Shown: in pieces, positions 25,869 to 62,811 of the stretch
How positions within the stretch are numbered: position 1 is the first letter of the stretch
Layout of the letters: each line of letters opens with the position of its first letter
Source: Streptococcus canis
GTDB lineage: Bacteria > Bacillota > Bacilli > Lactobacillales > Streptococcaceae
Length of the DNA stretch: 64,000 bases
Reading direction: 5' to 3'
Assembly (NCBI RefSeq): GCF_900636575.1
Contig: NZ_LR134293.1
Location: 421,001 to 485,000, forward strand
Translations under genes and position numbers: made by a program
The notes under the pieces: generated by a model
Database searches by the model: none
What the model was told of the DNA's origin: nothing
What the model saw: only the letters and a program-made list of their open reading frames with translations

Positions 25869-25869
25869 A

Positions 25870-28522: not shown

Positions 28523-28524
28523 AC

Positions 28525-28854: not shown

Positions 28855-28865
28855 TCAGTTCCTCC

Positions 28866-29628: not shown

Positions 29629-29762
29629 TGGTCAAAATAGCTTCAATATGCTATAATTTAAGACATAAAACCCCTTTAATAATAGCTTGCCTGCTTTATT
29701 AATTGAGTTTAGTTATACTAGTTAAAGGCTTGGAAGTTTGGTCGCTGTCAAAGCCTTTTTTG
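29629..29762 (+). ncRNA. candidate small RNA with its own promoter and terminator
   Basis: On the plus strand TGGTCA (29629-29634), a 17-bp spacer and an extended TATAAT (29652-29657) predict a start near 29,664. AAAGGCTT (29724-29731) pairs with AAGCCTTT (29751-29758) and is followed by T6. This gives a transcript of about 100 nt, antisense to the leftward operon. Its first 30 nt are repeated almost exactly in the integrase leader at 34,262. No ORF is evident. Confidence 0.5.
29666..29695 (+). repeat. 30-bp direct repeat, copy 1 (second copy 34,262-34,291)
   Basis: The two 30-bp copies differ at one position. Copy 2 lies in the 5' leader of the integrase gene just before its ribosome binding site. 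The 3' ten bases (CTTGCCTGCT) also occur inverted at 22180-22189 near attL. Confidence 0.8.
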
Positions 29763-29779
29763 TTGTTCTGGGTTATTGA

Positions 29780-30022
29780 TTAATAATTACCTTGTTCAAT
29801 GTCATTCAAACGCTTTTGCTCTGCTTTGCGATCATAGATTAGCACTTTGTCATCAAGCATAAGCGATACGCCTTCCAATACGTTGAAAATTTCCTGTGTG
29901 ACTGCTTCAAATTGTTCACGATCCACACTAGGTACTTTATCAGCGTAACCCTGTGCTAGTTCAGCAAAATCAACACCTTCATCAATCCATTTCTTTAACT
30001 CTTTGTAAGTTGTTGCTTTCAT
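29780..30022 (-). CDS. hypothetical island protein, 80 aa
   Basis: The ATG at 30022 is chosen because AAAGGAG lies 8 nt before it; an ATG at 30043 would read through that site. The product (MKATTYKELKKWIDEGVDFA onward) is small, acidic and helical with a beta hairpin (LMLDDKVLIYDRKA). No family is recognised. Confidence 0.55.
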   Translation of the reverse strand: MKATTYKELKKWIDEGVDFAELAQGYADKVPSVDREQFEAVTQEIFNVLEGVSLMLDDKVLIYDRKAEQKRLNDIEQGNY

Positions 30023-30035
30023 AGTATTTTCTCCT

Positions 30036-30443
30036 TTATCCATAGAGTTCCGTTAGTTCTTTAAAATACTGATCAGGAATTTCATCCATAGCCACTTGTT
30101 GTAATTGAATGGCCTTTAAACGATTGGTGTCGCTAGCAGTCGGTTTATTAATAATTTCAGCCGTTGCCTGTACTTGCTTGAAATACTCTTCAAGCTTAAG
30201 TTGCCTTCCTGCGGAAACTTCTTCGGATATGGCTTTTCTGTTATTGATAATTTCAAAGGTATCAATTTCACCGTTTGCCATGGTGTAATCAATGTTATTT
30301 CGATACCGCCAAGCTGCCAGCCTAAGCTTGATGTCTTTTTCAGGCCAATCGGGGAGCCGTTCAGCAATCAGCTCTATGCTCATTGTTCCTGTATCGTCAA
30401 ATATCTGATGTAATAATTCTTGTGTAAATGGTGTTCTAGCCAT
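30036..30443 (-). CDS. hypothetical island protein, 135 aa
   Basis: This soluble, mainly helical protein has a helix-turn-helix-like N-terminus (TMSIELIAERLPDWPEKDIKLRLAAW, split here) and a C-terminal coiled segment. It resembles small phage proteins found below antirepressors, but function is unknown. The gene is closely linked to its neighbours on the minus strand. Confidence 0.55.
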   Translation of the reverse strand: MARTPFTQELLHQIFDDTGTMSIELIAERLPDWPEKDIKLRLAAWRYRNNIDYTMANGEIDTFEIINNRKAISEEVSAGRQLKLEEYFKQVQATAEIINKPTASDTNRLKAIQLQQVAMDEIPDQYFKELTELYG

Positions 30444-30463
30444 TTTTTATTTACCTACCTTTC

Positions 30464-31072
30464 TTAATGGGTTGCTCTACTGTAAATAGCGTTTGAAACA
30501 CTGATACCAAGGTCAAATTTATCCTTGATTACCATAAGTTCAACGGTATCATCTAATAACTGCTCTCTATCTTTTAACATTTGTTCAGTCATTTGAGATT
30601 TGCCAATCATCTTTGGTAATCCATACTTATTAGATACCGCTTTATTGGCAATCGTGTTGGCTTTGATAAGGTCAGTCTGTTTAACCTGTTCTAAGCCATT
30701 AACCAGTCTATTCATTGCCTGCTTCTGATGTTCTTTATCTAACATTCTAAACACTTGGAAGCCCTCTAGGCCTGTGCTTTGTCTTAACTGTTTAATGGTT
30801 TCAAATACCCATAATTTAAAGGTTTTGGCTTCCTTCTTACGGCTTGAGAAGATAGTTTCATAAATGCCAAACTCATTAACGATTAACATTTCTTGTTGAC
30901 GCCCTAAACTGTCTGCGACGTGGTTGTTTGAAACAACCTCATCTCCCAAACGTTGTTTAATAAATTTTGGCTTCAGATCTAGTGCTTTAGCAATATCAGC
31001 TAGCACCGCCCACCATTCGCCATTATGCTCTACAAATCGGATAGTATATCCGTTCCATGTTTCTGTTCTCAA
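30464..31072 (-). CDS. phage antirepressor (BRO-N type)
   Basis: This 202-residue protein starts with a BRO-N domain: WNGYTIRFVEHNGEWWAVLA, then DIAKALDLKPKFIKQRL and MLIVNEFGIYETIFSSRKKEAK, the classical antirepressor pattern. The C-terminal half is helical. Such proteins inactivate repressors or modulate lysogeny. It overlaps the Cro-like gene by 50 bp and is the second gene of the leftward operon, where it could help derepress the island. Confidence 0.8.
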   Translation of the reverse strand: MRTETWNGYTIRFVEHNGEWWAVLADIAKALDLKPKFIKQRLGDEVVSNNHVADSLGRQQEMLIVNEFGIYETIFSSRKKEAKTFKLWVFETIKQLRQSTGLEGFQVFRMLDKEHQKQAMNRLVNGLEQVKQTDLIKANTIANKAVSNKYGLPKMIGKSQMTEQMLKDREQLLDDTVELMVIKDKFDLGISVSNAIYSRATH

Positions 31073-31313
31073 TAAGTTGTCCTTTCAACTCTTCTGGTGT
31101 TAGTTCTATTTTTTTCGTACTATCACCTAAAAAAATATCATCTAACTTAACATGATACAACTCTGACAAGTCTTTCAACAGCTCAAAAGGAATTAGAGTA
31201 CTATCTTTTTCGTACTTTGAGATGGTCTGAAAATTCTTGCCTACTTTTTTTGCTACCTGTCGCAAGGTATAACCTGCATTTACTCGACACGCTTTTAGTG
31301 TCCATTGTGTCAT
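31023..31313 (-). CDS. Cro-like XRE regulator
   Basis: This 96-residue protein has an XRE helix-turn-helix (YTLRQVAKKVGKNFQTISKY) and a short C-terminal extension. It is first in the leftward operon and diverges from the repressor gene, as Cro does. Operator-like TTTTCGTACTAT motifs surround both promoters and one lies within this gene. Confidence 0.8.
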   Translation of the reverse strand: MTQWTLKACRVNAGYTLRQVAKKVGKNFQTISKYEKDSTLIPFELLKDLSELYHVKLDDIFLGDSTKKIELTPEELKGQLIENRNMERIYYPICRA

Positions 31314-31342
31314 TTTTTAACTCCTTTCAAAAGTGATAAAAC

Positions 31343-31429
31343 AATAGTACTATTATTTTCGTACTTGGTCAAGTGCTTTTGAACAAAAGTTTTATTTTTT
31401 TCGTACTATGTCGTTTTTTGTGTTATAAT
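31343..31429. promoter_or_regulatory. divergent promoters and repeated operators of the island switch
   Basis: Leftward promoter: TTGACC (31367-31372 region, minus strand) and TACTAT at 17 bp. Rightward promoter: TCGTAC (31401-31406) and TATAAT (31424-31429), also at 17 bp. Operator-like copies are AATAGTACTATT (31343-31354), TTTTCGTACT (31356-31365) and TTTTCGTACTAT (31398-31409). A further copy lies at 31112-31123 inside the Cro-like gene. Copies overlap both promoters, so one repressor could control both directions. Confidence 0.75.
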
Positions 31430-31464
31430 CAAAATAGAAAATTAGTGAAATGGAGGGGAATCAC

Positions 31465-32007
31465 TTGGCAAAGAATAGCCCGCAGGATATAAAAAATAGG
31501 GAATACTTTTCTGATAATCTTAACAGAATTATGAAAGAAAAAGGAGTCCGGCAAATTGATTTACATAATAATACAGATATCCCAAAAAGCACGATAACTG
31601 GGTACGTAAAGGGAAAATCCTTGCCTACACCGGGGAATCTTCAAAAAATAGCTGATTTTTTAAATATAAAAAAATCCGATTTAGATTTACGTTTTAATCC
31701 AAGGGAGGAAAATCCACAAATAAAATTAATTGATTCATGGTTGAATGGTCTAATGGAGTTATCTAACATCGAAAGTTCGGTTACTGAAAACGGCGATGCT
31801 TCTTCCAAGACTGTGGGAGAGATGCTTGATTACTACAGCAAAGTAAGCATTATCGGATTAGAATTTATAAGAGCATTTGAAAACGGTGAAACAAAAATAG
31901 AGGCTGAAAAAAGATTATCTAAAAAATACACGAAAAAAGATATTGTGGTTGCTTTGCGACTTTTGAAAAATATGGCTCTCCATCACTCGAGTGATAAAGT
32001 AGACTAA
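31465..32007 (+). CDS. XRE-family island repressor (CI/Stl-like)
   Basis: This protein of about 180 residues has an N-terminal helix-turn-helix (RQIDLHNNTDIPKSTITGYV) and a C-terminal helical domain without the Ser-Lys autocleavage motifs of LexA-type repressors. The start is a TTG at 31465, 6 nt after GGAGGGG. The ATG at 31450 lies upstream of that site with no ribosome binding site of its own. Lack of an autoprotease domain suggests derepression by a partner protein, as for SaPI Stl, rather than by SOS; this is inference. Confidence 0.8.
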   Translation: MAKNSPQDIKNREYFSDNLNRIMKEKGVRQIDLHNNTDIPKSTITGYVKGKSLPTPGNLQKIADFLNIKKSDLDLRFNPREENPQIKLIDSWLNGLMELSNIESSVTENGDASSKTVGEMLDYYSKVSIIGLEFIRAFENGETKIEAEKRLSKKYTKKDIVVALRLLKNMALHHSSDKVD

Positions 32008-32038
32008 CCCACGCGCCACGGTGTGAAAATCCTAAATA

Positions 32039-32071
32039 CCTAATCAGTTTATTTCTGAATTAGAGGTTTTT
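32039..32071 (+). terminator. probable terminator after the repressor gene
   Basis: CTAATCAG and CTGAATTAG arms are followed by a T-rich tract on the plus strand. The remaining gene-free stretch to 32,262 holds GCGCGTG motifs but no ORF that I can support. Confidence 0.5.
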
Positions 32072-32262
32072 AGAGATTTCTGCGCGTGCTTCCCTCATGC
32101 TTCAGCAAGTCCGCTGGCCTTGTCTAAACCTTGTCACTTTTTAGGGTGGATAAAATGGCCGATTTTCTTTTTAAGACGTCAGCAATGTCATCTTTTCAAG
32201 GTGTCTAAAATTACTATGATACTTTGCTATTAAGAAATACATAATAAAGAAAGTGTGAAAAT

Positions 32263-32538
32263 ATGGATGAATTAATGCAACAAATGGCTGATAAATTCGG
32301 TGACATGGTCCAGGCTGTAATCATTGAAAAAATAAAAGTCATTGATATTGATCAGACATTACCCATGGAACTTAACCAAAAACAATTGGCAACTTTGCTC
32401 GGTTGTTCTACAAGTCGTTTACCTGAATTTATTTATCGGAAAGATTTTCCTAAGATTGATAGAGGATATGGAAGAAGATTAGCCTTTCCAAGAGATGCCG
32501 TGAGAGAATGGTATAACAATAACTGGCACAAGTTATAA
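32263..32538 (+). CDS. AlpA/excisionase-like DNA-binding protein
   Basis: This 91-residue protein has its DNA-binding domain in the C-terminal half: LNQKQLATLLGCSTSRLPEF, then a wing with GYGRRLAFPRDAVREWY. This is the AlpA/MerR-type excisionase pattern. In PICIs an AlpA homologue lies beside the repressor and integrase and controls integrase or excision. Here it is between the repressor and the cargo gene, reading toward the integrase. Confidence 0.65.
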   Translation: MDELMQQMADKFGDMVQAVIIEKIKVIDIDQTLPMELNQKQLATLLGCSTSRLPEFIYRKDFPKIDRGYGRRLAFPRDAVREWYNNNWHKL

Positions 32539-32571
32539 ACAAATTAACTAAGATGATTTTTAAACTTTCCC

Positions 32572-32703
32572 GCGCGTGTGCGAATGTGTGTGCGAATTGA
32601 TTGTTATCGACAAATCCTTTAATAACGCCTTTTTCTAACAGGAAACAAACTTATTAGTCTGCGCGTGTGCGAATGCGTGTGCGAATGCGTGTGCGAATTG
32701 ATT
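32572..32703 (+). repeat. GCGTGTGCGAAT repeat clusters upstream of the AlbA-type gene
   Basis: A first cluster (32572-32603) and a second (32661-32703) both start GCGCGTGTGCGAAT and end in GCGAATTGATTG. In the second the 12-mer GCGTGTGCGAAT is repeated in tandem. GC-rich motifs of this sort are unusual in the surrounding AT-rich sequence. The repeats lie just before the gene's ribosome binding site. Confidence 0.75.
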
Positions 32704-32712
32704 GGAGAAAAA

Positions 32713-34227
32713 ATGAGAAAATACGATATACAAAAATTGTTATTATCAGGGGAGAATCAAAGTGTCGAATTTAAAGAAGCTAAAAATTCTTTCCCTAAAG
32801 ACGGTATGAAAACAATTTGTTCCTTCGCTAATACAAATAATGGTCTGTTAATTCTAGGGGTCTCAGAAAACACAAAGAGTAAAGATTTTTATATTTCCGG
32901 CGTTAATGATTCCGATAAAGTACTGGACGAATTATATAGTTTACTTAATAACCCTAAGAAAATTAATAGAAATGTGATTAATGAAGAAAGTGTTGAAGTC
33001 ACAAATATAAAAGGAAAAGAGATTATCATTATCTCTGTTAACAAGGTTGACTACAAGGATAAACCTATATATCTTAATGACAATATAGCATCTACCTATT
33101 TTCGTCAGGGGACTGGTGATTTTAGGTGTTCACAAGAACAAATCAATGCGATGCTAAGAGATTCTGCAAAAGAAAGTTTTGATAGTACACTTGTTCAGGA
33201 TTTCTCTATTTTAGATTTAGATAGAGAAACAATAAACCGTTATAGAGAAAAGTTCGATAATATTAATGCTGAACACCCTTTTTCCAAATTAGACACCGAG
33301 CAATTTCTCTTAAAAATAAACGCTCTACGAAGAGATCGTACAGACAATAAAATAAAACCAACTGTGGCTGGATTATTAATTTTTGGAACACATAATGCCA
33401 TAAAAGAGTTTATTCCTCACTATAACGTAGAATATGTTTTAAAAGAATTTACCGAAAATAATCGATTTAAAGACCGAGTAATTTATGATGGTACGTGGGG
33501 AGAAGATAATCTTTTTAATTTCTTTCACCTAGTTATCGAAAAATTGTATCTAACTTTAAATGACAACTCTAACATTCAAGAAAATTCTATGAATAGAATT
33601 GGGATTTCAAAGTTACGAATTGCAATTCGTGAGGCATTCGTTAACAGCCTTATTCATAGTGATTATAAAAGCGAAAAAGGGATAATGGTAATTAGATATT
33701 CTGATAGATATATATTCACAAATGGCGGAACACTTAGAATTGACCTAAAGGACTTTTTTAGTGGGGCACATTCTGATCCAAGAAACTACTTAATACAAGA
33801 AACTTTTAGGTTTTTAAATTTATGTGAAAAAGCGGGAACTGGTATCCCTAAAATAATGGAAGCAGTTAAAGAGAGTCATTTAAAGTATCCCAAATTACGA
33901 ACTGAATTAGACTCAGTTGAACTTACATTATGGGATACTTCCCTTATAGATAACCTAGATATTGATAACGAATATGAGAAAAAAATATTAGAGTTAATAA
34001 TCGAAAACCGTTTCATAACAAGAGAGACTTTGGAAGAAAAACTAAAAATCCATAAAAATACAATTTTAAAATATTTAAAAAAATTAGTGGAAAAACAAGC
34101 TATCAATAAATTCAAATCTGGTAGACAATACGTATACTTTATTGCACAAAACCAAGATCCTGAATTTCAAAAATATAACCACATTGATGCTATGTATTCT
34201 CTACTAGAAGAAATGAAACGAAAATAA
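32713..34227 (+). CDS. Schlafen AlbA_2 domain / ATP-binding regulator, island cargo
   Basis: This 504-residue protein begins MRKYDIQKLLLSGENQSVEF, an AlbA_2 (Schlafen-type) domain. A GHKL-type ATP-binding segment (REAFVNSLIHSDY, later TNGGTLR and EKAGTGIPKI) and a C-terminal winged helix (IHKNTILKYLKKLVEKQ) follow. The start at 32713 follows TTGGAG; a longer in-frame reading would translate the repeat cluster as alternating MCECVC and is rejected. Such proteins are annotated as regulators or RecG-like. Position between regulator and integrase, and AT-rich codon use, suggest accessory cargo such as a defence or helper-interaction gene (inference). Confidence 0.75.
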   Translation: MRKYDIQKLLLSGENQSVEFKEAKNSFPKDGMKTICSFANTNNGLLILGVSENTKSKDFYISGVNDSDKVLDELYSLLNNPKKINRNVINEESVEVTNIKGKEIIIISVNKVDYKDKPIYLNDNIASTYFRQGTGDFRCSQEQINAMLRDSAKESFDSTLVQDFSILDLDRETINRYREKFDNINAEHPFSKLDTEQFLLKINALRRDRTDNKIKPTVAGLLIFGTHNAIKEFIPHYNVEYVLKEFTENNRFKDRVIYDGTWGEDNLFNFFHLVIEKLYLTLNDNSNIQENSMNRIGISKLRIAIREAFVNSLIHSDYKSEKGIMVIRYSDRYIFTNGGTLRIDLKDFFSGAHSDPRNYLIQETFRFLNLCEKAGTGIPKIMEAVKESHLKYPKLRTELDSVELTLWDTSLIDNLDIDNEYEKKILELIIENRFITRETLEEKLKIHKNTILKYLKKLVEKQAINKFKSGRQYVYFIAQNQDPEFQKYNHIDAMYSLLEEMKRK

Positions 34228-34261
34228 AGACCTTCTCGTAAGCCCTGACATGATATAAACC

Positions 34262-34291
34262 TAAAACCCTTTTAATAATAGCTTGCCTGCT
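34262..34291 (+). repeat. 30-bp direct repeat, copy 2, in the integrase leader
   Basis: This copy is identical to 29,666-29,695 except at one base. It ends two bases before the GGAAAGG ribosome binding site region of the integrase gene. Confidence 0.8.
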
Positions 34292-34310
34292 GATGGAAAG
34301 GTTTATGATC

Positions 34311-35456
34311 ATGAAGATAACAGAACATAAAAAAAAAAACGGTACAATCGTTTATCGTGCCAGTATTTATCTAGGTATTGACCAGGTAACAGGTAAGAGA
34401 GTAAAAACCAGTCTCACCGGAAGGATACAGACAGAAGTTAAGCAAAAAGCCAAACACACGCAGTTTGACTTCCTGTCTAATGGTTCTACAATACATAAAG
34501 AAGCACAGATTAGGAATTATCAAGAGTTGGCAGAACTATGGCTAAAGAGTTATCAGCTCACCGTTAAGCCACAGACTTATGAAAGCACTAAATTGCTGCT
34601 TAAAAATCATATTCTGCCCGTTTTCGGTAATATGAAGTTAGAAAGGATAACTCCTAGCTTTGTTCAACAATTTGCCAATAAACTAGCACACACCTTAGTA
34701 AATTTTAAGGTTGCTTGCTCTATTAACCGCAGAATTCTCCAATATGCGGTACTATTGCAACTTATTCCTTATAATCCAGCTAGGGAAATCATTATCCCTA
34801 AAAAGCAAAAGAAATCAGCCGATAGGGTAAAATTTATTAATCCTCAAAATCTAAAAGCATTGCTCGACTATATGGAAACATTAGCACCAACCAAATATCA
34901 ATATTATTATGATAACGTCCTTTATCGCTTTTTGTTAGCCACTGGTTGCCGTTTTGGTGAAGCGGTAGCTCTCGAATGGTCTGATATTGATTTAGAAGCT
35001 GGTACCGTTAGTATCTCAAAGACGTATAACCGACAAATCAATCAAATCAGCACACCCAAGACAAAATCCGGTAAGCGTATCATTAGTATTGATAACAAAC
35101 TAGTCCTACTGTTAAAACAATATAGGAATAGACAAAGATTAATTTTTATAGAAATCGGTGCGCATGCTCCTAAAGTCATTTTTGCTAGTCCAACCCTAAC
35201 ATACGCGAGTAGTGACGTTAGATCAAAAGCATTAGCACACCGCTGCAAAGAAATAGGTATCCCTCGCTTTACCTTTCACGCTTTTAGACATACTCACGCT
35301 AGTTTATTGCTGAACGCCGGTATCAGTTACAAAGAACTACAACACCGATTAGGTCACTCCAATATCAAAATGACCTTAGACACGTACGGACATATCTCAA
35401 AAGAAAAAGAAAAGGAAGCTGTTTCCTATTTTGAGAAAGCTATAAATAACCTGTAA
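34311..35456 (+). CDS. int: tyrosine-type site-specific integrase of the tyrS island
   Basis: This 381-residue phage-type integrase has an N-terminal arm-binding domain (VYRASIYLGIDQVTGKRVKT) and a core-binding SAM-like domain. The catalytic domain has Arg in GCRFGEAVALEW, HAFRHTH, LGHSN and the nucleophile in TLDTYGH. Start at 34311 (MKITEHKKKN) is 9 nt after GGAAAGG; ATGs at 34293 and 34305 are alternatives. attR lies 80 bp downstream. It should catalyse integration at the tyrS 3' end. Confidence 0.92.
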   Translation: MKITEHKKKNGTIVYRASIYLGIDQVTGKRVKTSLTGRIQTEVKQKAKHTQFDFLSNGSTIHKEAQIRNYQELAELWLKSYQLTVKPQTYESTKLLLKNHILPVFGNMKLERITPSFVQQFANKLAHTLVNFKVACSINRRILQYAVLLQLIPYNPAREIIIPKKQKKSADRVKFINPQNLKALLDYMETLAPTKYQYYYDNVLYRFLLATGCRFGEAVALEWSDIDLEAGTVSISKTYNRQINQISTPKTKSGKRIISIDNKLVLLLKQYRNRQRLIFIEIGAHAPKVIFASPTLTYASSDVRSKALAHRCKEIGIPRFTFHAFRHTHASLLLNAGISYKELQHRLGHSNIKMTLDTYGHISKEKEKEAVSYFEKAINNL

Positions 35457-50694: not shown

Positions 50695-51210
50695 ATGATT
50701 AATCCTTTCCTACTTCAAAATATTTACTCATGTCTAATGTTATTGATTAAAACGATACTTTATCTAACAGTTACTATCTTTTATCAAATAATTAGAAAGT
50801 TCCTTTATACTTACTAACAACCTATTAATATTAAGTTAATTATAACACAAAACACAGACTCACTAATAGACAAAAGTTAACAATTTTTAGCTCCTATATT
50901 CAAAAATATCAATACTAAGAAATATACACAGCTTTCTAAAGCATCTTCCTAACAAGGACTCCCTCGCAAATAAGAACATTTTGTAGACCTATTTACCTTG
51001 GTCTAAAACCATACAAGGAAAATTGTAAGTGGAAAAAGGTTCCAGAGTCTGATTTGACTTTGGAACCTTTTTCAATACTCCTCGTTACGGGATACTTACG
51101 ATAATTCACATAAATAATTTTTCATTACTTCACTTGAATTGATAATTAACAATCACATAATTCAAAAAGCTAGCTTATCACAGTTGGCTTGTTTGGAAAT
51201 AACAGTATTT
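50695..51210. other. AT-rich intergenic stretch with one terminator
   Basis: A TATAAT on the minus strand (50839-50844) may belong to the small membrane protein gene. A hairpin lies at 51,033-51,072. Otherwise I see no coding or repeat structure in these 516 bp. Confidence 0.4.
51033..51072. terminator. terminator downstream of the collagen-like gene
   Basis: AAAAAGGTTCCA pairs with TGGAACCTTTTT over an 18-base loop. It has A and T tracts on its sides and so could work in both directions. Confidence 0.8.
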
Positions 51211-51894
51211 TTAATTGTTTTCTTTACCTTTTCTAACTGCAGTTGTAGCAGCTGTTGCTAATACTGCCAGTGCAGCTGTCGTGAAAAATGGATTACTCTT
51301 TTCACCACTCATAGGCAATTCTTTATTTACACTCACATATTTACTAGGAACTTTTACTTCCTTTTTATCACTAGCAAGATCCTTGTTTAAGCTACTATTG
51401 TCGGAAGGGAGCATTTGTGGTTTCTGAGGAATGATTATATCAGGAGAGTTATGATTACCTTGTTCTCCTGGTTCTCCTTTTTCACCACGTGGTCCTTGTG
51501 GTCCCATTTCGCCTCTCTCTCCACGAGGACCTGGAGGTCCAGGGACTCCTTGGTTCTCCTTAATCTCTTCCTGTAAACCCATAATATTTACATCAACTTT
51601 CTGATGAACATCATACTCCTCTGCCATATATTTTTTCAAAAATTTTTCAAGTTTTTCTAAATATTCATAAATATCATAAGTCTTATAAGTATTTCCAACA
51701 ACTAACCGACCTGGACCCGGTATCGTTTGAACCTTAGGAAGTTCATTTATGATTGTACTAAGGGTTGACAAATTATTTTGATTTACAGTATTAGCTGCTA
51801 CCTTATTTACCCCAACACTAGACATTCCAAGCAAGGTAATTGCCAGCAAGCTAGTACCAACGACACGACGACATAGGGACATGTTTTTTCTCAT
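51211..51894 (-). CDS. collagen-like surface protein with LPMSG sorting signal
   Basis: This 227-residue protein has a signal peptide (cleavage likely after KVAA, residue 34), a variable domain (35-114) and a collagen-like run of ten G-X-Y triplets (about 116-145, beginning GVPGPPGPRGER). A linker follows, then LPMSG, a hydrophobic helix and a basic tail. It resembles the Scl family of group A streptococci but the collagen region is short. Scl-type proteins bind host cells and matrix. Its promoter has a (TA)n spacer, a possible on/off switch. Confidence 0.9.
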   Translation of the reverse strand: MRKNMSLCRRVVGTSLLAITLLGMSSVGVNKVAANTVNQNNLSTLSTIINELPKVQTIPGPGRLVVGNTYKTYDIYEYLEKLEKFLKKYMAEEYDVHQKVDVNIMGLQEEIKENQGVPGPPGPRGERGEMGPQGPRGEKGEPGEQGNHNSPDIIIPQKPQMLPSDNSSLNKDLASDKKEVKVPSKYVSVNKELPMSGEKSNPFFTTAALAVLATAATTAVRKGKENN

Positions 51895-51932
51895 TGATCA
51901 TTTCTCCATTTTTCCTCAAATTATCAAGTAAC

Positions 51933-51959
51933 ATTATATATATATATATATATCTTCAA
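51933..51959 (-). promoter_or_regulatory. collagen-like gene promoter with a (TA)n spacer
   Basis: On the minus strand TTGAAG (51954-51959) and TATAAT (51933-51938) are separated by 15 bp made only of alternating A and T. One extra TA unit gives the ideal 17 bp. The whole alternating run spans 51935-51952. Confidence 0.65.
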
Positions 51960-52077
51960 GCTCATGATTTTATCAGATTTCACTTTTCTGAACTGGTAAA
52001 CCAAGTCGCTCATTTCCCCTCGTAGCTGTGCTTACATTAGGTCAGAAACTTAGCTGCGGAGAAGTTAGAGCCAAGCG

Positions 52078-52114
52078 AAAAAAGCCATGATTTCAATAGA
52101 AATCACGGCTTTTT
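52078..52114 (-). terminator. terminator of the histidine-triad gene
   Basis: AAAAAGCCATGATTTC pairs with AATCACGGCTTTTT. On the minus strand it is downstream of the gene with a T tract. The rest of 51,960-52,268 shows no gene. Confidence 0.75.
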
Positions 52115-52268: not shown

Positions 52269-54683
52269 CTAGTTTCCCTCGTAAGGCATCGGATTTGCCA
52301 CAGAATGATCAACCTCTGGACTTTCTACCTCATCTTTATTGCTATTTAAGGCTTCTGGCGCCCTTTCTTCGCCTGGCTCAGCTACTGTCTCGTCAGAAGT
52401 CGAACTTGGTGATAAAAACTCATCAAGCCAGCTATCAGAAGCATTGGTATCATCTGTATCATTGTCATCAGCAATGTTCTTAAATAAAATGTTATAAACC
52501 TTATCTTCCGTCACAGGAGCATGATAGTCGGCCTCTGACACAATGATGTGAGAATAATCCTGTCTATACCCCTTTTGAGGTTGAGTTGATGGCGGTAACA
52601 CTTTCGCTTCCGAAAGGCTTGTTCCCTTCCTAATTAAGTAAACTAAGCTCTTTCCTCTTCCGATTGGTGAGACTAGCTCTCCACCATTTCCAGCTTTAAA
52701 AGCTATGGCAACATAATTTTTGGGATCATGCCAAAAATAATTAGGGTGTCTGCTTGGATCATGAATATCCGTTGGATTATCTGGATTTTTTGCAAAATAA
52801 GGTCCAATTTTTAGATTAGTCGTTCCAAATGCAGCCATGCTAATCGTAGTGCTTACTTTATCATCAGCATTTCTTCCATCAAAAGAGATATGACGCCACT
52901 CAATAAATTCATAATTATCATTTGGAATAGGAGTCGGTTCCTTAAGACCATTTTCCCAAGCTTCTTTCCATGTCAAGCCAGGCTTAACATAGTAGCTAAA
53001 TCCTCCTTGAGTAACATCACCAAGCTTAACACTACCATTTTGTAGCACAGTATATTTAATTGGAACGTATCCTTCTAAATCAATCTCCGAAACATCATCT
53101 TCTGGACCATAGACGTTTTTAGTCGGCTGTTTTTTATTTCTATCAAAATCAACGTAAAAAGAACGGTGTTCTCTTTCCATTTTACCAGAAGTTGGGAGTT
53201 CATTAGTCCAACCTTTAAAGACACGACCTTCATCTTTAACAGCATCTGGTCGCTGAATATTCAAATCTTCCCAATTCAAGTCTTTGCGAACTAAATAATA
53301 TACTCTCTTGGTTTTGTGACCATCTACTAGTAAATTACCATAATCACTATTCGTACTAAATGTCAGTAAAACAAAGTTTTTAATATTTTGGAGGCCTTTT
53401 GGATTATACTTTTGATAAACTCCTTTACGAGTTAAGCTTTCAGCTGAACCCTCCGTGTAAAATGGACCATAAACAAGCTGCTGTTCAACATCAAGATTTG
53501 TCGTTTCGGTCTTAACATCACGCTCAGGATCATCAGGTAAATTAGGATCAATTTTATAAACATGGGCATGATCTCCGTGACGAACACTCATATAATTGCC
53601 ATCAATAGTAATGTCTTCACGCTTAACCTTGAAACGCTCCATGTACTCTTTTATCAGTCTTTCTTTTCTTTGCTCAATACTTTCGCCTGCTTCTTGTCTC
53701 ATAATATGATCTTCTGGACTTTCAAAAGGCTTATTAATATCAAGTTCACTCAAAAAAACCACATGAGTATGATCACCATGAGGATACTCTAGCCCCACTT
53801 TGCCTTCATTTACGACTTTCTTAATCTGTGAAATTTCTACATGAAGTTCTTTAGCCAAATAAGCGCGTTTTACTTGAAAATCAGCCTCTTCCTGCGTTAG
53901 GGTAGGAGTATGCTCGTCTTTAGACTGGTTTTTGTATTGATTAACTAAATAAGACCACTTACTCTGTTGCAAAACATCAAAACTGATGGGATGTAAATGA
54001 TTCCCATGTTTTACTAAAATTCCGGTACTTGTCACACCACTAATATTGGTTCCATCGAATAAGAACCCATCACTTGTTCTAAAGTCAATACCTGATACTC
54101 CGCCACCTTTTTGGTGTATAACTGGTGGCACTGATGGGATAGAGTAAGAATTTCTACTAATTTGTCGTAGAGTTGATGTTCCTAAAGTTGACTTCAAAAT
54201 ATAATGATAATGGTCGCCATGACGAACAGTATAACCATTAGCATCTTCTGAAACTATATCACTAGGATTAAAAACATAGCCATCTTCAGTTTGACCCAAA
54301 AATCCTTGGCTATTATTATGACCAGCATTAATAGCTTTAGGACTGACATGACCCTTGTAATCTTTAGGAATCAAATAGTCCCATTTGGTTCCTTTTAAAT
54401 CTGAATAAAAGAAAAAATGCTTGTGATCGCCATGCTTCACAATAATTCCTGTATCTGTTTTGCTCTCAATCTGTGACTCATCCGTTAACAAAAAACCATC
54501 ATCAGTAGGCTTATCTATACCAGAAATATCCTTACGCATTCCCTTTTTAGAGAGTTTTTTATGCCTTGGCTTTTTTGTTTTAGTAGTCTTTTGGTAACTT
54601 TTAGAATCTTGTGATTGATTAGTCTGAGACGTTGAATGACAGGCAGTTAATGCTAGACTACAAGTAAGCAAGATGCCTGTCAA
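52269..54683 (-). CDS. htp: histidine-triad (Pht/Htp) zinc-scavenging lipoprotein
   Basis: This protein of about 804 residues has a lipobox (ALTAC) near its start and five HxxHxH motifs (HGDHKH near 84, HGDHYH near 155, HGNHLH near 226, then HGDHTH and HGDHAH). These bind zinc outside the cell and pass it to the Adc system. The C-terminal third is a beta-rich adhesin-like region ending in acidic residues. The first usable start is TTG at 54683, which leaves the signal peptide without its basic part; a better placed codon, 54714-54716, is ATA. No lmb gene is adjacent. Confidence 0.9.
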   Translation of the reverse strand: MTGILLTCSLALTACHSTSQTNQSQDSKSYQKTTKTKKPRHKKLSKKGMRKDISGIDKPTDDGFLLTDESQIESKTDTGIIVKHGDHKHFFFYSDLKGTKWDYLIPKDYKGHVSPKAINAGHNNSQGFLGQTEDGYVFNPSDIVSEDANGYTVRHGDHYHYILKSTLGTSTLRQISRNSYSIPSVPPVIHQKGGGVSGIDFRTSDGFLFDGTNISGVTSTGILVKHGNHLHPISFDVLQQSKWSYLVNQYKNQSKDEHTPTLTQEEADFQVKRAYLAKELHVEISQIKKVVNEGKVGLEYPHGDHTHVVFLSELDINKPFESPEDHIMRQEAGESIEQRKERLIKEYMERFKVKREDITIDGNYMSVRHGDHAHVYKIDPNLPDDPERDVKTETTNLDVEQQLVYGPFYTEGSAESLTRKGVYQKYNPKGLQNIKNFVLLTFSTNSDYGNLLVDGHKTKRVYYLVRKDLNWEDLNIQRPDAVKDEGRVFKGWTNELPTSGKMEREHRSFYVDFDRNKKQPTKNVYGPEDDVSEIDLEGYVPIKYTVLQNGSVKLGDVTQGGFSYYVKPGLTWKEAWENGLKEPTPIPNDNYEFIEWRHISFDGRNADDKVSTTISMAAFGTTNLKIGPYFAKNPDNPTDIHDPSRHPNYFWHDPKNYVAIAFKAGNGGELVSPIGRGKSLVYLIRKGTSLSEAKVLPPSTQPQKGYRQDYSHIIVSEADYHAPVTEDKVYNILFKNIADDNDTDDTNASDSWLDEFLSPSSTSDETVAEPGEERAPEALNSNKDEVESPEVDHSVANPMPYEGN

Positions 54684-55571: not shown

Positions 55572-56984
55572 GGCTCTATAATTTCTGTAGTGGGTAAAAC
55601 CACCAAAGAAGTTATAGGGCTTTTTGAGTGTATCAAAAAAGTCCCATATGACTTATAATGAAAAGCGACGAAACTCACATTAGAAGGACTCATATGGAAC
55701 ACATTAATCTTACCAAAAATCTCTTGAAAGTAAAAGACCCAAATGTTCAAAGTACTAAAGTCATTCATCTGGAGACTCACTCTGAGGTGCTAGCCCTACT
55801 GGATTACCCTGCACCAAACTGTCCAGCATATCAGGCCAAAATGAGTAAATATGACTTTCAAAAACCATCTAAAATCCCTTATCTTGAGTCAGTTGGTTAT
55901 AAAACATTGATTCGTCTGAAAAAGAGACGATTCCAGTGTCAAAATTGCCGTAAAGTCTTGGTGGCAGAAACATCTTTAGTCAAGAAAAACTATCAAATCC
56001 CTTACATGATTAATCACAAAATCAGCCAACTCTTGATGGAAAAACGTAGCCTCACTGACATCGCAGAGCAACTGACTATCTCAACTTCGACAGTCATTAG
56101 ACAACTCAAAACGTTCCAATTCAAAACTGATTTAACGTCATTGCCCGAAGTCTTATCTTGGGATGAATTTGCCTTTCAAAAAGGGAAGATGAGTTTTGTC
56201 GCTCAAGATTACACAACCAACAAAATTATCGCTATTCTAGACGGTCGAACACAGGCAATCATTAGAAATCACTTCCTACGTTACCAAAGAAGCGTCCGTG
56301 AAAAGGTCAAATGGATTACCATGGACATGTTTGCGCCCTACTATTCCTTAGCTAAAGAGTTATTTCCAAATGCTCAAATTGTGCTTGACCCTTTCCACAT
56401 TATCCAGCACCTCAACCGTGCAATGAATCGAACTAGAATTGCCATCATGAACACCATGGACCGCAAATCTCATCAGTACCGTGCCATCAAGCGTCACTGG
56501 AAACTCATCCAACAAGATAGCCGTAAACTCAGCGATAAACGCTTCTATCGGCCTACTTTTCGAATGCACTTAACCAATCAAGAAATCGTTGAGAAGCTCC
56601 TTGATTACTCGGATGAACTTCGTTATTACTACGACCTTTATCAACTCTTACTCTTTCATTTCCAAGAAAAGAATAGCCAATGCTTTTTTGAACTCATTGA
56701 CTAAGAAATGAAGGGGGGCAATCCAATCTTTCGTACGGTTTTCCAAACCTTTCTCAAGGACAGAGATAAAATCGAGAATGCACTGGAACAACCCTATTCA
56801 AATGCAAAATTGGAAGCAACCAACAACATCATTAAAGTCATTAAGCGCAATGCTTTTGGCTTTCGGAACTTTGAAAACTTTAAAACCAGAATATTAATCA
56901 CTCTAAATATGAAAAAAGAGAAGACCAATCTGGTCCTCTCAAGATGTTAGCTTTTCATCTACCCACTACAGTTGACAAAGAGCC
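55572..56984. mobile_element. ISL3-family insertion sequence
   Basis: The ends are inverted repeats beginning GGCTCT and sharing CTGTAGTGGGTA (left arm from 55572, right arm ending 56984). Flanking AAAAAAC on both sides fits a target duplication of about 8 bp blurred by the A run. It carries one transposase gene with a nonsense codon. It sits between the dead integrase and the tRNA-Leu fragment. Confidence 0.85.
55694..56950 (+). pseudogene. ISL3-family transposase interrupted by a stop codon
   Basis: The frame starts MEHINLTKNLLKVKDPNV (ATG 55694) and includes the zinc finger (CPAY, CQNCRK), a helix-turn-helix (LTDIAEQLTISTSTVIRQL) and the DDE domain (VLSWDEFAF, WITMDMFAPY, CP...DPFHIIQHL). 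A TAA at 56702-56704 falls in frame between ELID and EMKGGNPIF, and the rest (LPYSNAKLEATNN-like YSNAKLEATNNIIKVIKRNAF region) follows in the same frame. Unless the stop is suppressed the enzyme lacks its last 80 residues, including the catalytic Glu. Confidence 0.85.
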
Positions 56985-58898: not shown

Positions 58899-58918
58899 TT
58901 CTCCATGAGGTGCTGATT

Positions 58919-60238
58919 ATGTTCAAACCAAAGCAAGTCGCTGACTTAAAAAGAAATTATATTATTTCAACTAGCAAATTAAAGATAGCTCATTGGTCAA
59001 TATTAGGCTTCTCTACTTGTATTATACTTACTATTATTGCAAATATTAGAGCCCCTGACCTTATTAAAATCCCTTTATTTATTCTAGCAGGATTTGTCAT
59101 ATACAAATTTCATCGTCAATTAAAATATTTTAGATATCATTTGGATTATTACCTAATTATCAGAGAAAGCTTATTGTATGTATTAAATACAAACCATCTT
59201 TATACAACATATAAAGATAGCTCAGGATATGAAAAAATCTCTAGAAGTGCAATCTTGCAATACGAGCTAGACAAACAAAAAGGGCATATCCTTATCAAAG
59301 CTCTGATTACTGGTGATGAATTTAGCAAAAAAGTACAATCACTTGATGATGTTCTTGCTGGAGTACTCGAACTGGAACTAGAAGAAAAAATTATCCGTCC
59401 TAATTTTGTGGAATATCATTTCTATTACAAGAAACCTGATAGGTTAGTTCTTCAATCTCACAACCAGAAGCAAGAGATTGATAGTCTTAATATAGATTTA
59501 GGATATGGTGTGAATTATAATCCTGTCAAGTGCCCTCATATTCTAGTTGCTGGTGGTACAGGAAGTGGGAAATCAGTATTGATATCTTTCTTAATTTTAG
59601 AATTTTTAAAACGCCAATCAACTGTCTATATAGCAGACCCTAAAAATTCTGACCTAGGTAGCTTATCATATTATTTCGGAGAAAAGTATGTAGCAACAAC
59701 TCCGAACAATATCGCTCGTATTGTCCGTTTAGTAGTCGAAGAAATGCATGAACGATATCAATATATGCGGGATAACTTCCAATATGGAACAAACTTTGCA
59801 GACCACGGATTCAAACCAGTATGGATCATCTTCGATGAAATGGGAGCTTTTCAAGCTTCAGGAACTGATAAAAAATCAAAAGAAATTATTGTTGAAGTTA
59901 TGGATGGCATTAAACAAATTATTCTACTAGGAAGACAAGCAGGCATATTTATCCTTGTGTCAGCTCAGCAAATGAGAGCCGAAACCCTAAATACCGACCT
60001 TAGAGATAACTTGGGGTTGAGAATTGCTCTTGGTGCTAATTCTAGTGAGGGCTACCGCATGGTCTTTGGTTCGGCTACTCCTGATAAGTTAAAACCTATC
60101 GAAGAAAAAGGTGCAGGTTATCTTTATATGCAAGGTTCAGGCAAGGAGACAGCACAATACTGGGAAAGTCCTTATCTTGATATCACTCAATTTGACTTTA
60201 TCAAAGAATTACAACTTTATTTAACAAAAACAAACTAA
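58919..60238 (+). CDS. FtsK/SpoIIIE-type ATPase, TcpA-like coupling protein
   Basis: This 439-residue protein has two N-terminal membrane helices (about residues 22-45 and 47-65). A P-loop GGTGSGKS (212-219), Walker B VWIIFDEMGAF and the sensor ILVSAQQM follow. It matches the TcpA-like coupling ATPases of ICEs and IMEs, which bring the relaxase-DNA complex to a secretion channel. The ATG at 58919 follows GAGGTG. Confidence 0.85.
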   Translation: MFKPKQVADLKRNYIISTSKLKIAHWSILGFSTCIILTIIANIRAPDLIKIPLFILAGFVIYKFHRQLKYFRYHLDYYLIIRESLLYVLNTNHLYTTYKDSSGYEKISRSAILQYELDKQKGHILIKALITGDEFSKKVQSLDDVLAGVLELELEEKIIRPNFVEYHFYYKKPDRLVLQSHNQKQEIDSLNIDLGYGVNYNPVKCPHILVAGGTGSGKSVLISFLILEFLKRQSTVYIADPKNSDLGSLSYYFGEKYVATTPNNIARIVRLVVEEMHERYQYMRDNFQYGTNFADHGFKPVWIIFDEMGAFQASGTDKKSKEIIVEVMDGIKQIILLGRQAGIFILVSAQQMRAETLNTDLRDNLGLRIALGANSSEGYRMVFGSATPDKLKPIEEKGAGYLYMQGSGKETAQYWESPYLDITQFDFIKELQLYLTKTN

Positions 60239-60250
60239 TTCCAACGGATG

Positions 60251-60311
60251 TTGTTGCTTAAATTCGCTAGATTTTCAGCAACAATATCTGTTCCTCATCG
60301 CTCTGCGATGA
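60251..60311. other. two hairpins before the 104-aa gene
   Basis: TTGTTGCT/AGCAACAA (60251-60284) and TCATCG/CGATGA (60295-60311) stand between the ATPase gene and the next ORF. They may be regulatory or part of a transfer origin; no T tract follows. Confidence 0.4.
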
Positions 60312-60327
60312 TAGAAAAGAGGTATAC

Positions 60328-60642
60328 ATGAAATTAAATGATTTTCTTAAGGCAGAATTGTTAGGTAGCCGTTTTGTAGCTGTAAAGGGATACAGTGAGG
60401 TTCTAGACCGTGAGACTGGAAAGCCAACTGCTCTTCGGTTGAATGTTTCTATCCAAGATGAAACATCTGATTTCTTTATGGAAATGATACAAGTCAAGGT
60501 GAATACTTTAACACCTTCTGCTACTGTTCAAGAGATGGCAAACAACAAGACTTGTCCTGTTGTACTTAAAGATTTAAATGTTGGGCAATTCAATGGCAAT
60601 CTTTGGTTTGCTTGCTCTGATGTCTTACCTGTAACAAAATAG
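60328..60642 (+). CDS. conserved mobile-element protein, 104 aa
   Basis: This is a small soluble protein with a beta-rich fold (GSRFVAVKGYSEVLDRETGK, LRLNVSIQDETSDFF, FNGNLWFACSDV). It resembles small proteins that accompany replication genes of ICEs and IMEs, possibly an OB-fold nucleic-acid-binding accessory factor; this is inference. It is downstream of the FtsK-type ATPase on the same strand. Confidence 0.55.
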   Translation: MKLNDFLKAELLGSRFVAVKGYSEVLDRETGKPTALRLNVSIQDETSDFFMEMIQVKVNTLTPSATVQEMANNKTCPVVLKDLNVGQFNGNLWFACSDVLPVTK

Positions 60643-60683
60643 TTGTGATAAAATATAACAAAAACATATAAAGGAGTTTTACA

Positions 60684-61073
60684 ATGCAAGTTTTTAGCTA
60701 CGATGATTTTAAAAATGAAAAGGAGATTATGTCATTTTCTGAAGCGGAACAAATCTATTCTAATCTTCTTAATTCCTCTAATCAGCTTGATAAAGAATTC
60801 CAAGAAGAATGGACAACATTTGTACTACTCTGCGTAGAATATGCCTCTGCACGTGGCAAATGGCTCACACTCTCAAGAGAAGAAAAACTTGCCAATGATG
60901 AAGCAAGAACTGTTACTCACAATAAGGTGATTTATCAACTAAAACTCTTAAAAGGTTTGGCAAATGAACAGGGTAATGATGTTTCTTGGTTTGAAAAATT
61001 TAACGATGATAGAAAACGTATTGGAGACTTTGCTTGCTTTGTGGCTTATATCTATGCCTTAAATGCAAGATAG
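60684..61073 (+). CDS. hypothetical mobile-element protein, 129 aa
   Basis: AAAGGAG precedes the ATG. The protein is helical and acidic in its N-terminal half (DDFKNEKEIMSFSEAEQIYS), with CVEYASARGKW in the middle and FACFVAYIYALNAR at the end. No family is recognised. It overlaps the frame upstream of the metallophosphoesterase gene and is probably co-translated with it. Confidence 0.55.
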   Translation: MQVFSYDDFKNEKEIMSFSEAEQIYSNLLNSSNQLDKEFQEEWTTFVLLCVEYASARGKWLTLSREEKLANDEARTVTHNKVIYQLKLLKGLANEQGNDVSWFEKFNDDRKRIGDFACFVAYIYALNAR

Positions 61074-61089
61074 ACAATTAGAGGAAATT

Positions 61090-61851
61090 ATGGCTAAATA
61101 TTACTCTATGTCCGATATACATGGACATTATGATGAATTTATTGAAAGCCTGTCAAAAGTAGATTTATCTGATAAGAACAGTTTATTGATTTTGCTTGGA
61201 GATTATATCGATAACGGCTCTCAATCATTGCAAGTCATTTCAAAAATAATTGAACTTGAAAAATATTATCCTGACCAAGTTATCACTTTATTAGGCAATC
61301 ATGAAGAATACTTTGTTGAGTGGCTACTTGAGGAAGAGACTGCAAAATATTCTTCCTCTGCTACGATTAACAGCTTCATTAGTCAGAATAAGCGAGAAAC
61401 TATTGTTAATTCAGTAATATCAGACCTATCTTTTTCTGATGAAGAATGTCTAAATCAAATTGATAAGAAAATGAAAGACTATATTATTGCTGAGTATCCT
61501 GAAATTGTGGATTGGCTTAAAGATAAATTTTTTAATACAGAACGATTTTTTGAGACCGACTACCAAATATTTGTTCATGCTGGAATTGATGAAGAATTAG
61601 GACAAAACTGGAAACTATTTTCCAATCCTGATATATTTACTAAGAAGTTCCCTGCAAGTATCGGAAAATTTTATAAAGATATTATTGCAGGACACATCTA
61701 TTCAGAAGAAATTGCTAAAGATAGTGATGTACTGGGTAAAATTTACTTTGATAACTATAATCACTACTACATTGATGGTCATGTGTCTCTTAGTAAGACT
61801 ATACCAATTCTGGCATTCGATACGACTACTAAAAAGTACCACTACTTATAA
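61090..61851 (+). CDS. metallophosphoesterase (PPP/Ap4A hydrolase-like)
   Basis: This 253-residue protein starts MAKYYSMSDIHGHYDEF. The calcineurin-like motifs are complete: SDIHGH, LGDYIDNG, LGNHEE, then HAG and AGH near the C-terminus, all metal ligands. Such enzymes dephosphorylate proteins or dinucleoside polyphosphates. Start at 61090 follows GAGGAA. Two phosphoesterases (this and the EEP protein) in one small element suggest a linked accessory function; the substrate cannot be deduced. Confidence 0.8.
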   Translation: MAKYYSMSDIHGHYDEFIESLSKVDLSDKNSLLILLGDYIDNGSQSLQVISKIIELEKYYPDQVITLLGNHEEYFVEWLLEEETAKYSSSATINSFISQNKRETIVNSVISDLSFSDEECLNQIDKKMKDYIIAEYPEIVDWLKDKFFNTERFFETDYQIFVHAGIDEELGQNWKLFSNPDIFTKKFPASIGKFYKDIIAGHIYSEEIAKDSDVLGKIYFDNYNHYYIDGHVSLSKTIPILAFDTTTKKYHYL

Positions 61852-61969
61852 CTTCTAATCATGTACCTAAGCAAAACTGCCGACTGGAGGTCGGCAAGCT
61901 GGAAGCGTGTTTAGCGGAGCAGTGCTTAGGATCACATGATAGAAGTTAGGAGGAGCAAAGCTCCTCCTA
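61851..61969 (+). other. strongly folded 120-nt region before rep: candidate oriT/dso or structured RNA
   Basis: Nested perfect arms are present: ACTTCTAATCATGT (61851-61864) with ACATGATAGAAGT (61934-61946); CCTAAGCA (61866-61873) with TGCTTAGG (61923-61930); TGCCGAC (61878-61884) with GTCGGCA (61890-61896). They are followed by a 10-bp hairpin TAGGAGGAGC/GCTCCTCCTA (61947-61969). A GGC-GAAA-GCC hairpin lies just before the rep ribosome binding site. The position beside an HUH enzyme suggests a nick site region. Confidence 0.6.
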
Positions 61970-62028
61970 GTTTATTTATTATATAGACAATCTTTTGGCG
62001 AAAGCCAGCCTAAAAGGAACTATTTTTT

Positions 62029-62811
62029 ATGACCTCATATAATAAAAAAATAGTCCGCACTTCTTCCTATATTGAAATTTGGGAATATGAAAAGCCAATA
62101 TTTTCAAAAGGAAAAAACATTTTAGAAGCTAATACTGAAAATAAAGAAAAAACGCAACGCAGAACATTTGATGAACTAACACCCGAAGAACAAGAACAAC
62201 GTCTTGAACGTATGAAGAAAACTCGCTTAGAAGCAAAGTGGAATTTACTCCGTCTAGTAGATTGTAATTATGATAACAATACTTCATTTCTAACCTTAAC
62301 CACTAAAGAAAATATCAGCGATAGAAATCACTTCAAAAACTTACTCAAAACCTTTATCAAACGCTTTAATTATCACATATTTAAGACTAAAAAAAGCCGA
62401 TTAAGATACATATCAGTATTAGAAAAGCAAAAACGTGGAGCATGGCATGCTCATATTCTGCTATTCAGCGTCCCTTATATTCCACATAAGCAATTATTAG
62501 AACTTTGGGGACATGGGGCAGTACGGATAAATAAAGTTGATGTTGATAGCAAAGAAAATCGCGGTCGATATGTTACTAAATATTTTGAAAAAGGTATCGG
62601 CCAAGAGCTATTAGAAAACTTCGGTAAACAAGCCTATTTATCATCACGCAACTTGAAAAAGCCTGATGAAGATAAATTTTACACTTACGAAGATTTTAAC
62701 TACGATAGTTCGGTCGTCCTATATGAAACGGAATACACGAGTAAGGTCTATAAAGACGGTCAGTATTTCGATAATCATGTAAAGTATAAGAAAATAAAAC
62801 TAGATGAATAA
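62029..62811 (+). CDS. rep: HUH-type rolling-circle replication initiator/relaxase
   Basis: This 260-residue protein has the three RCR motifs: SFLTLTT (86-92), the metal-binding HUH-type WHAH (139-142) and a tyrosine motif RYVTKYFEK with Tyr181/Tyr185. It resembles phage G2P/ORF2-type Rep proteins. It would nick the element at its origin for replication after excision and may serve as relaxase for mobilization. The strongly folded region lies directly upstream. Confidence 0.82.
   Translation: MTSYNKKIVRTSSYIEIWEYEKPIFSKGKNILEANTENKEKTQRRTFDELTPEEQEQRLERMKKTRLEAKWNLLRLVDCNYDNNTSFLTLTTKENISDRNHFKNLLKTFIKRFNYHIFKTKKSRLRYISVLEKQKRGAWHAHILLFSVPYIPHKQLLELWGHGAVRINKVDVDSKENRGRYVTKYFEKGIGQELLENFGKQAYLSSRNLKKPDEDKFYTYEDFNYDSSVVLYETEYTSKVYKDGQYFDNHVKYKKIKLDE

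What the first reader, a model, noticed from the sequence alone, without database searches (positions are those of the whole stretch)
51933..51959. Collagen-like adhesin promoter whose spacer is a TA dinucleotide repeat
The -35 (TTGAAG) and -10 (TATAAT) boxes are 15 bp apart and the spacer is pure alternating TA. Gain of one repeat unit gives the optimal 17 bp, loss gives 13 bp. This matches the logic of phase-variable fimbrial promoters with TA repeats between -35 and -10 and would switch the surface protein by slippage. Known scl2 phase variation uses coding repeats instead.
Basis: partly seen in the sequence, partly recalled or inferred. Interest (0 to 1): 0.72.

Follow-up and report, generated by a model that had tools for sequence, protein, structure and literature searches.

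The report
TA-repeat promoter of a surface protein
A collagen-like surface protein gene, very probably of Streptococcus canis, has a promoter whose spacer is a slippage-prone TA repeat; an almost identical promoter in front of a second surface gene carries two repeat units fewer, which suggests (but does not prove) a length-based expression switch.

Summary
In detail: on the minus strand TTGAAG (51959-51954), a 15-bp pure alternating TA spacer and TATAAT (51938-51933) stand 38 nt upstream of the ATG of a short LPXTG collagen-like gene. It is not chance. The 2.08-Mb genome holds four TA arrays of five or more units; all four abut the TATAAT of a gene for a predicted exported or wall-anchored protein. 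The best test available here is a paralogue: an M-like LPXTG gene elsewhere in the genome shares a 248-bp promoter, leader and signal-peptide cassette (240/248 identical), and its TA array is two units shorter (spacer 11, not 15). Of 284 Streptococcus genomes, 44 hold 56 TTGACA-(TA)n-TATAAT sites; of 212 other genomes of the order, 1 has one. One orthologous promoter has spacers of 7 to 21 bp. This fits slippage-tuned promoters working like Haemophilus hifA/B; a published pneumococcal AT tract (spxA1-tenA) shows such tracts vary and change expression in this genus. Not shown: polymorphism of this tract among isolates, the transcription start, any effect on transcription, or switching. TTGAAG is a weak -35, and an extended -10 just upstream is a live rival. 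Verdict: phase variation plausible, unproven.

The parts
51954..51959 (-). -35-like hexamer TTGAAG (4 of 6 to TTGACA)
51939..51953 (-). 15-bp spacer, pure alternating TA
51935..51953 (-). TA array, 9.5 units, overlapping the -10; the only place in the genome with eight consecutive TA units
51933..51938 (-). -10 hexamer TATAAT
51967..51975 (-). rival extended -10 element TGATAAAAT (would put the TA array into the transcribed leader)
   Evidence: role is inference
51904..51907 (-). ribosome-binding site GGAG
   Evidence: read from the sequence
51211..51894 (-). 227-aa collagen-like LPXTG surface protein (signal peptide, short Gly-X-Y stretch, wall anchor)
51787..52034 (-). promoter, leader and signal-peptide cassette shared (240 of 248 columns) with an M-like LPXTG gene at 686 kb of the same genome
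52079..52114 (-). terminator-like hairpin after the upstream histidine-triad gene, so the collagen-like gene probably has its own promoter
   Evidence: -22.5 kcal/mol, z -5.9; not listed by the scan
51032..51073 (-). terminator-like hairpin downstream of the collagen-like gene (likely monocistronic)
   Evidence: -26.4 kcal/mol, z -5.7; not listed by the scan
52269..54683 (-). upstream neighbour: streptococcal histidine-triad protein

Best explanation
The collagen-like gene is transcribed from a sigma-A promoter whose -35/-10 spacing is set by a TA microsatellite. Replication slippage adds or removes 2-bp units, so sister cells can carry 13-, 15-, 17- or 19-bp spacers and make different amounts of the protein; 17 bp is expected to be strongest and the sequenced 15-bp allele weaker. 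The same promoter-leader-signal cassette was copied between this gene and an M-like surface gene, where the array stands at an 11-bp spacer, so the two genes would switch independently. Shown: the anatomy, the cassette sharing, the two-unit length difference, and the genus-wide recurrence with variable lengths. Inferred: the promoter in use, the effect of length on transcription, and the switching.
For: Array and geometry. Rarity: 4 arrays of five or more units in the genome, all four directly at the TATAAT of genes for predicted exported or wall-anchored proteins: collagen-like, M-like, and two with a KxYKxGKxW-type signal. Sister cassette 240/248 identical with a 4-bp gap in the array, one 1-bp gap at the upstream edge and 3 substitutions. 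Genus: 56 TTGACA-N-(TA)n-TATAAT sites in 44 of 284 genomes, reversed-pattern control 0. In a sample of the order 4 of 34 Streptococcus genomes and 1 of 212 others match. In a scan that did not ask for a -35, 16 of 32 arrays have an exact TTGACA upstream, against about 0.7% by chance for each; these 16 are also among the 56, and 6 of them are one gene family. In that family, with matching flanks, nine genomes have spacers 7, 11, 11, 12, 12, 13, 15, 21, 21. In S. pneumoniae an AT tract upstream of spxA1-tenA runs from 10 to 38 bp over 33,625 genomes, gained ATAT spontaneously, and 22- and 38-bp tracts raise transcription 1.5- and 1.6-fold (PMC11709252, passages read).
Against: No isolate or read data for this locus could be reached: the only other cassette found is the paralogue. 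TTGAAG is a 4/6 -35, and an upstream extended -10 scores equally in a crude scheme. The sister promoter at 11 bp would be nearly dead by the same logic, so either that gene is off in this strain or the -35 is misassigned. Spacers across the genus are not peaked at 17 (15 is commonest, 12 of 56; 17 is 7 of 56). The pneumococcal effect is small, its 10-bp tract equals the 18-bp one, and it is described as lying upstream of the promoter between other flanks. The fourth array of this genome (five units) has no -35 at a workable distance.
Confidence: 0.58

Rival explanations
1. The gene is transcribed from the upstream extended -10 promoter (TGATAAAAT, 51975-51967), or from an activator-dependent promoter such as one under the Mga orthologue. 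The TA array then lies in the 5' leader, or only modulates DNA melting, and its length has little or a different effect.
For: Extended -10 with 5 of 6 matches within the shared cassette; equal top score in a crude scheme. TTGAAG is weak and the sister spacer is 11 bp. The region upstream of the array is conserved between the two cassettes. An Mga orthologue adjacent to scm exists in S. canis; whether it binds promoters is stated there to be still open (PMC11097546, part 1 of 4 and passages read).
Against: The extended -10 has no good -35 at 16-18 bp. TATAAT 38 nt before the start codon resembles the genus-wide set, where TTGACA precedes the array. The candidate leader shows no unusual fold (z 0.2 to 0.5), and no Rfam family matches.
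Confidence: 0.22
2. The TA array varies but is only a tolerated, AT-rich, easily melted spacer; variation is near-neutral and there is no meaningful switching.
For: Spacers from 7 to 25 bp occur, broader than a strict optimum would allow; the pneumococcal effect is modest.
Against: All 4 long arrays of the genome sit at promoters of predicted exported proteins; downstream genes in the genus often carry export or membrane features (41 of 51 against 18 of 54 window ORFs; the background is not taxon-matched and families repeat); most spacers are odd, the parity that can reach 17 (53 of 56), though exceptions exist.
Confidence: 0.17
3. Chance AT-rich sequence in a low-GC intergenic region.
For: AT-rich intergenic DNA; the generic promoter scan finds as many sites as shuffles do.
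Against: Expected number of nine-unit arrays genome-wide at most 0.00004; only four arrays of five or more units, all at TATAAT boxes before genes.
Confidence: 0.02

Closest known systems
Haemophilus influenzae hifA/hifB fimbrial promoter, (TA)9-11 (van Ham 1993 not read; seen only through passages of PMC2651432 and PMC11709252)
   Same: TA dinucleotide array proposed to set the -35/-10 spacing; adhesin product; neighbouring unit numbers differ in output
   Different: hif drives two divergent genes from one array; here there is one gene per array and the cassette is copied to a second locus; switching is reported for hif and only predicted here
Streptococcus pneumoniae spxA1-tenA AT tract (PMC11709252, passages read)
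   Same: Same genus, AT dinucleotide array of similar length (18 bp in 93.3% of genomes), length variation among isolates and a spontaneous +4 bp change
   Different: Tract described as lying within TTTRC-(AT)n-CRTTT upstream of the promoter of a toxin-antitoxin operon; effect 1.5-1.6-fold; not a surface protein
Scl1/SclA and Scl2/SclB collagen-like adhesins of Streptococcus pyogenes
   Same: Signal peptide, Gly-X-Y stretch, LPXTG anchor
   Different: Only 227 aa with a very short collagen stretch; far below the NCBIfam cut-offs for SclA and SclB; no coding repeat seen at the 5' end; the scl2 coding repeat is recalled
Invertible promoter of a surface protein in S. zooepidemicus (PMC2654543, passages read)
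   Same: Phase-variation-like control proposed for a streptococcal surface protein promoter
   Different: Recombinase-driven inversion, not slippage

Membership tests
Promoter-spacer microsatellite phase variation (hif type) | Simple sequence repeat between -35 and -10 | tested here: met
   -35 assignment weak (4/6)
Promoter-spacer microsatellite phase variation (hif type) | Repeat number varies between copies or isolates | tested here: inconclusive
   Met between paralogous cassettes and for orthologous promoters of other species; no isolates of this locus could be compared
Promoter-spacer microsatellite phase variation (hif type) | Repeat number changes transcription | not testable with these tools
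   needs reporter or RNA data
Promoter-spacer microsatellite phase variation (hif type) | Reversible, frequent switching in a clone | not testable with these tools
   needs deep reads or colony assays
Promoter-spacer microsatellite phase variation (hif type) | Product exposed on the cell surface | tested here: met
   By prediction only: LPXTG anchor PF00746 at 33.4 bits, cut-off 20; surface display itself not tested
Scl1/Scl2 collagen-like adhesins | NCBIfam SclA or SclB model above cut-off | tested here: not met
   SclB 86 of 325 bits and SclA 65 of 400 bits
Scl1/Scl2 collagen-like adhesins | Collagen Gly-X-Y region and LPXTG anchor | tested here: met
   Anchor above cut-off; collagen 25.8 bits, just under the 27.2 cut-off, over a short stretch that can be read in the sequence
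Scl2 coding-repeat switch | Short tandem repeat just after the start codon | tested here: not met
   sequence after the ATG; no tandem array there
spxA1-tenA type AT tract | TTTRC-(AT)n-CRTTT flanks upstream of the promoter | tested here: not met
   flanks here are GCTTGAAG and AATGTTAC on the coding strand

The most novel reading that the evidence does not exclude
Streptococci carry a genus-wide class of contingency promoters in which a TA microsatellite is the -35/-10 spacer, mostly in a register of odd lengths from which the 17-bp optimum can be reached. In this genome all its members drive predicted exported or wall-anchored proteins. Promoter-leader-signal cassettes with the array are copied between unrelated surface genes (collagen-like and M-like), so that one switch design serves several cargoes that vary independently.
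Probability: 0.33. Interest if true: 0.75.

Novelty: new member of a known kind. Interest (0 to 1): 0.6.

Why it matters
If true, this animal and occasionally human pathogen would vary two wall-anchored proteins (collagen-like and M-like) and at least one secreted repeat protein by slippage in promoters. I saw no description of that in the listings and passages from the ten searches of the open-access library made here; most listed papers were not opened. It would predict that array length, and so expression, differs between isolates, and it gives an easy test: count TA units in existing reads. More widely it points to a recurrent promoter type in Streptococcus, many of whose members have spacers outside the 16-18 bp that the scan used here allows.

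Tried and rejected
Isolate-level variation at this locus: among 284 genomes of the genus only this one holds the cassette. 79 genomes had hits at E 0.01 or better, but after this genome's two full-length hits the best is 66 bases at 80%; the list, sorted by E-value, was cut at its weak end. A variable-gap scan of viral contigs found nothing. The named genome collection gave six distant collagen-like loci, none of Streptococcus, and records of this genome may be left out there. The protein search shows near-identical proteins but not their promoters. The N-terminal part has distant relatives in two other genomes of the genus, G099 and G070.

Regulatory RNA in the leader: no Rfam match, no unusual fold. 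Phase variation by a coding repeat as in scl2: no repeat seen. Chance: disfavoured by genome-wide counts. The leader similarity to promoters beside a glucose-6-phosphate-isomerase-like gene in other streptococci (79-80% over about 65 bp, partly TA) was not pursued as common descent.

Limits: spacer parity. Over the 56 sites, 53 spacers are odd; in 30 of 32 families, grouped by hand, all are odd. Members outside that selected set break the rule: two 12-bp spacers with an interrupted array and one 10-bp spacer (L027). With them 28 of 32 families are purely odd, and families that share flanks are not independent. After this recount I lowered the probability of the novel case from 0.35 to 0.33. 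The 56 sites were selected for an exact TTGACA and a long array, so spacers below 9 bp were not sampled. Downstream ORFs were picked by a simple script; 51 of 56 have at least 100 aa and entered the export count, 5 were dropped. Its background is 54 ORFs of this window, not of the same genomes. The scan demanded a non-T base 25 positions upstream and a G after AAT, so it is a subset.

Full report
What is there. On the minus strand, TTGAAG (51959-51954), a 15-bp pure alternating TA spacer and TATAAT (51938-51933) lie 38 nt upstream of the ATG (51894) of a 227-aa protein with a signal peptide, a short Gly-X-Y stretch and an LPXTG anchor. The array runs into the -10 and counts 9.5 units, 51935-51953. 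A terminator-like hairpin follows the upstream histidine-triad gene (52079-52114) and another follows the collagen-like gene (51032-51073), so the gene is likely a single transcription unit (the simple scan lists neither).

Organism. The tools name no source. The protein search finds the same or nearly the same signal peptide in proteins labelled Streptococcus canis (P0037-P0041, P0050). A protein 100% identical over its whole length sits on a contig of 2,267,856 bases, the size given for S. canis FSL S3-227 (PMC3541175, passages and the virulence section read). I take the genome to be S. canis; the held genome has 2,084,744 bases.

Is it more than chance? The genome has one place with eight consecutive TA units, three with six or more and four with five or more. 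Markov models trained on the window predict at most 0.00004 nine-unit, 0.06-0.15 six-unit and 1.2-2.4 five-unit occurrences. All four arrays directly abut a TATAAT before a gene for a predicted exported or wall-anchored protein: the collagen-like gene; an M-like coiled-coil LPXTG gene at 686 kb between pepO-like and tsf-like genes (the names pepO and tsf are recalled from the look of the sequences); a repeat protein with a KxYKxGKxW-type signal at 981 kb (TTGACA, spacer 11); and a second such protein at 1,151 kb whose promoter-leader and start are 85% identical to the third over 136 columns (five units, no -35 at a workable distance).

The sister cassette. A 248-column stretch from upstream of the promoter through the leader to the end of the signal peptide is 240/248 identical between the collagen-like and the M-like gene. 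The differences are a 4-bp gap in the TA array, one 1-bp gap at the upstream edge and three substitutions. The array is thus two units shorter and the spacer 11 bp. This is direct evidence that this array differs by whole units, though between two loci, not between isolates. The M-like gene seems to be a second M-like gene rather than scm, because scm is reported beside mga and relA (PMC11097546, part 1 of 4 and passages) while this one lies beside tsf; I did not test this further.

A class of promoters in the genus. The pattern TTGACA-N(0-16)-ATATATATATATAAT occurs 56 times in 44 of 284 Streptococcus genomes, the reversed pattern never. In a sample of 246 genomes of the order (34 Streptococcus by my count of the rows), 4 of 34 Streptococcus and 1 of 212 others have a match. 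Spacers over the 56 sites are 9 (1), 11 (7), 13 (10), 14 (2), 15 (12), 17 (7), 18 (1), 19 (9), 21 (5) and 25 (2). In a scan that did not ask for a -35, 32 arrays were found and 16 have an exact TTGACA upstream, against about 0.7% by chance for each; these 16 are also in the set of 56, and 6 belong to one gene family. That family has matching flanks in nine genomes and spacers 7, 11, 11, 12, 12, 13, 15, 21, 21 (the two 12s have an interrupted array). Downstream proteins of at least 100 aa carry an export or membrane feature in 41 of 51 cases, against 18 of 54 ORFs of this window (not a taxon-matched background).

Parity. 53 of the 56 spacers are odd and 30 of 32 hand-grouped families are purely odd. 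Three further members outside the selected set are even (two, one), which leaves 28 of 32 families. The bias is suggestive of a register from which 17 bp can be reached, but families are not fully independent.

How it most likely works. Slippage of the TA array changes the distance between the -35 and -10 boxes in 2-bp steps. From 15 bp the optimum of 17 bp is one unit away; the sister promoter is three units short. Published work on S. pneumoniae spxA1-tenA reports AT-tract lengths of 10 to 38 bp in 33,625 genomes, a spontaneous +ATAT change, and 1.5- and 1.6-fold higher tenA transcript with 22- and 38-bp tracts, while a 10-bp tract equals the parental 18 bp (PMC11709252, passages read). The same passages compare it with hif of H. 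influenzae, where 10 TA units are reported as maximal and 9 or 11 as reduced. The original hif paper was not read.

What speaks against it. TTGAAG is only 4/6, and an extended -10 (TGATAAAAT, 51975-51967) scores as high in a crude scheme. If it is the promoter, the array lies in the leader. Spacers across the genus are not centred sharply on 17. No isolate data, no transcript data and no reporter data were available. The sequenced 11-bp sister allele should be nearly inactive by the same logic.

Known or new. It works like hif-type promoter-spacer phase variation, but membership is only partly tested: the anatomy is met, variation is met between paralogues and across species, effect and switching are untested. 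The protein itself is Scl-like but does not reach the SclA or SclB model cut-offs. In the listings and passages seen from ten open-access literature searches I saw no description of this promoter or of a TA-spacer class in streptococci; most listed papers were not opened, and most subscription papers are not in that library.

Noticed in passing
   Followed up: partly
L066 (981 kb) and L150 (1,151 kb) of the own genome: Two repeat-rich proteins with KxYKxGKxW-type signals share promoter-leader DNA (85%) and differ in their TA arrays; in G070 two similar genes have spacers 25 and 15.
   Followed up: partly
about 51450-51550 (Gly-X-Y coding stretch): Near-identical proteins of 227, 230, 233 and 260 aa in other records differ in the number of Gly-X-Y units, so the collagen stretch is length-polymorphic in frame.
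   Followed up: partly
L071, L078, L094, L120, L122 and others: In other streptococci lipoproteins and membrane proteins of different families have similar TTGACA-AC-(TA)n promoters and leaders, again suggesting that a promoter cassette is moved between genes.
   Followed up: partly
L026, L027, L029, L034, L035: Several streptococci carry a TA-spacer promoter just downstream of a glucose-6-phosphate-isomerase-like gene, followed by different small genes in different species; spacers 15, 10, 15, 19, 17.
   Followed up: partly
55658-56950: ISL3-family transposase that appears split over two consecutive ORFs (348 and 80 aa; only the first was scanned).
   Followed up: no
22951-35456 and 58910-62811: Genes that look like a phage-like or satellite element with an integrase, and an FtsK-like and replication gene set of an integrative element (by eye).
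   Followed up: no
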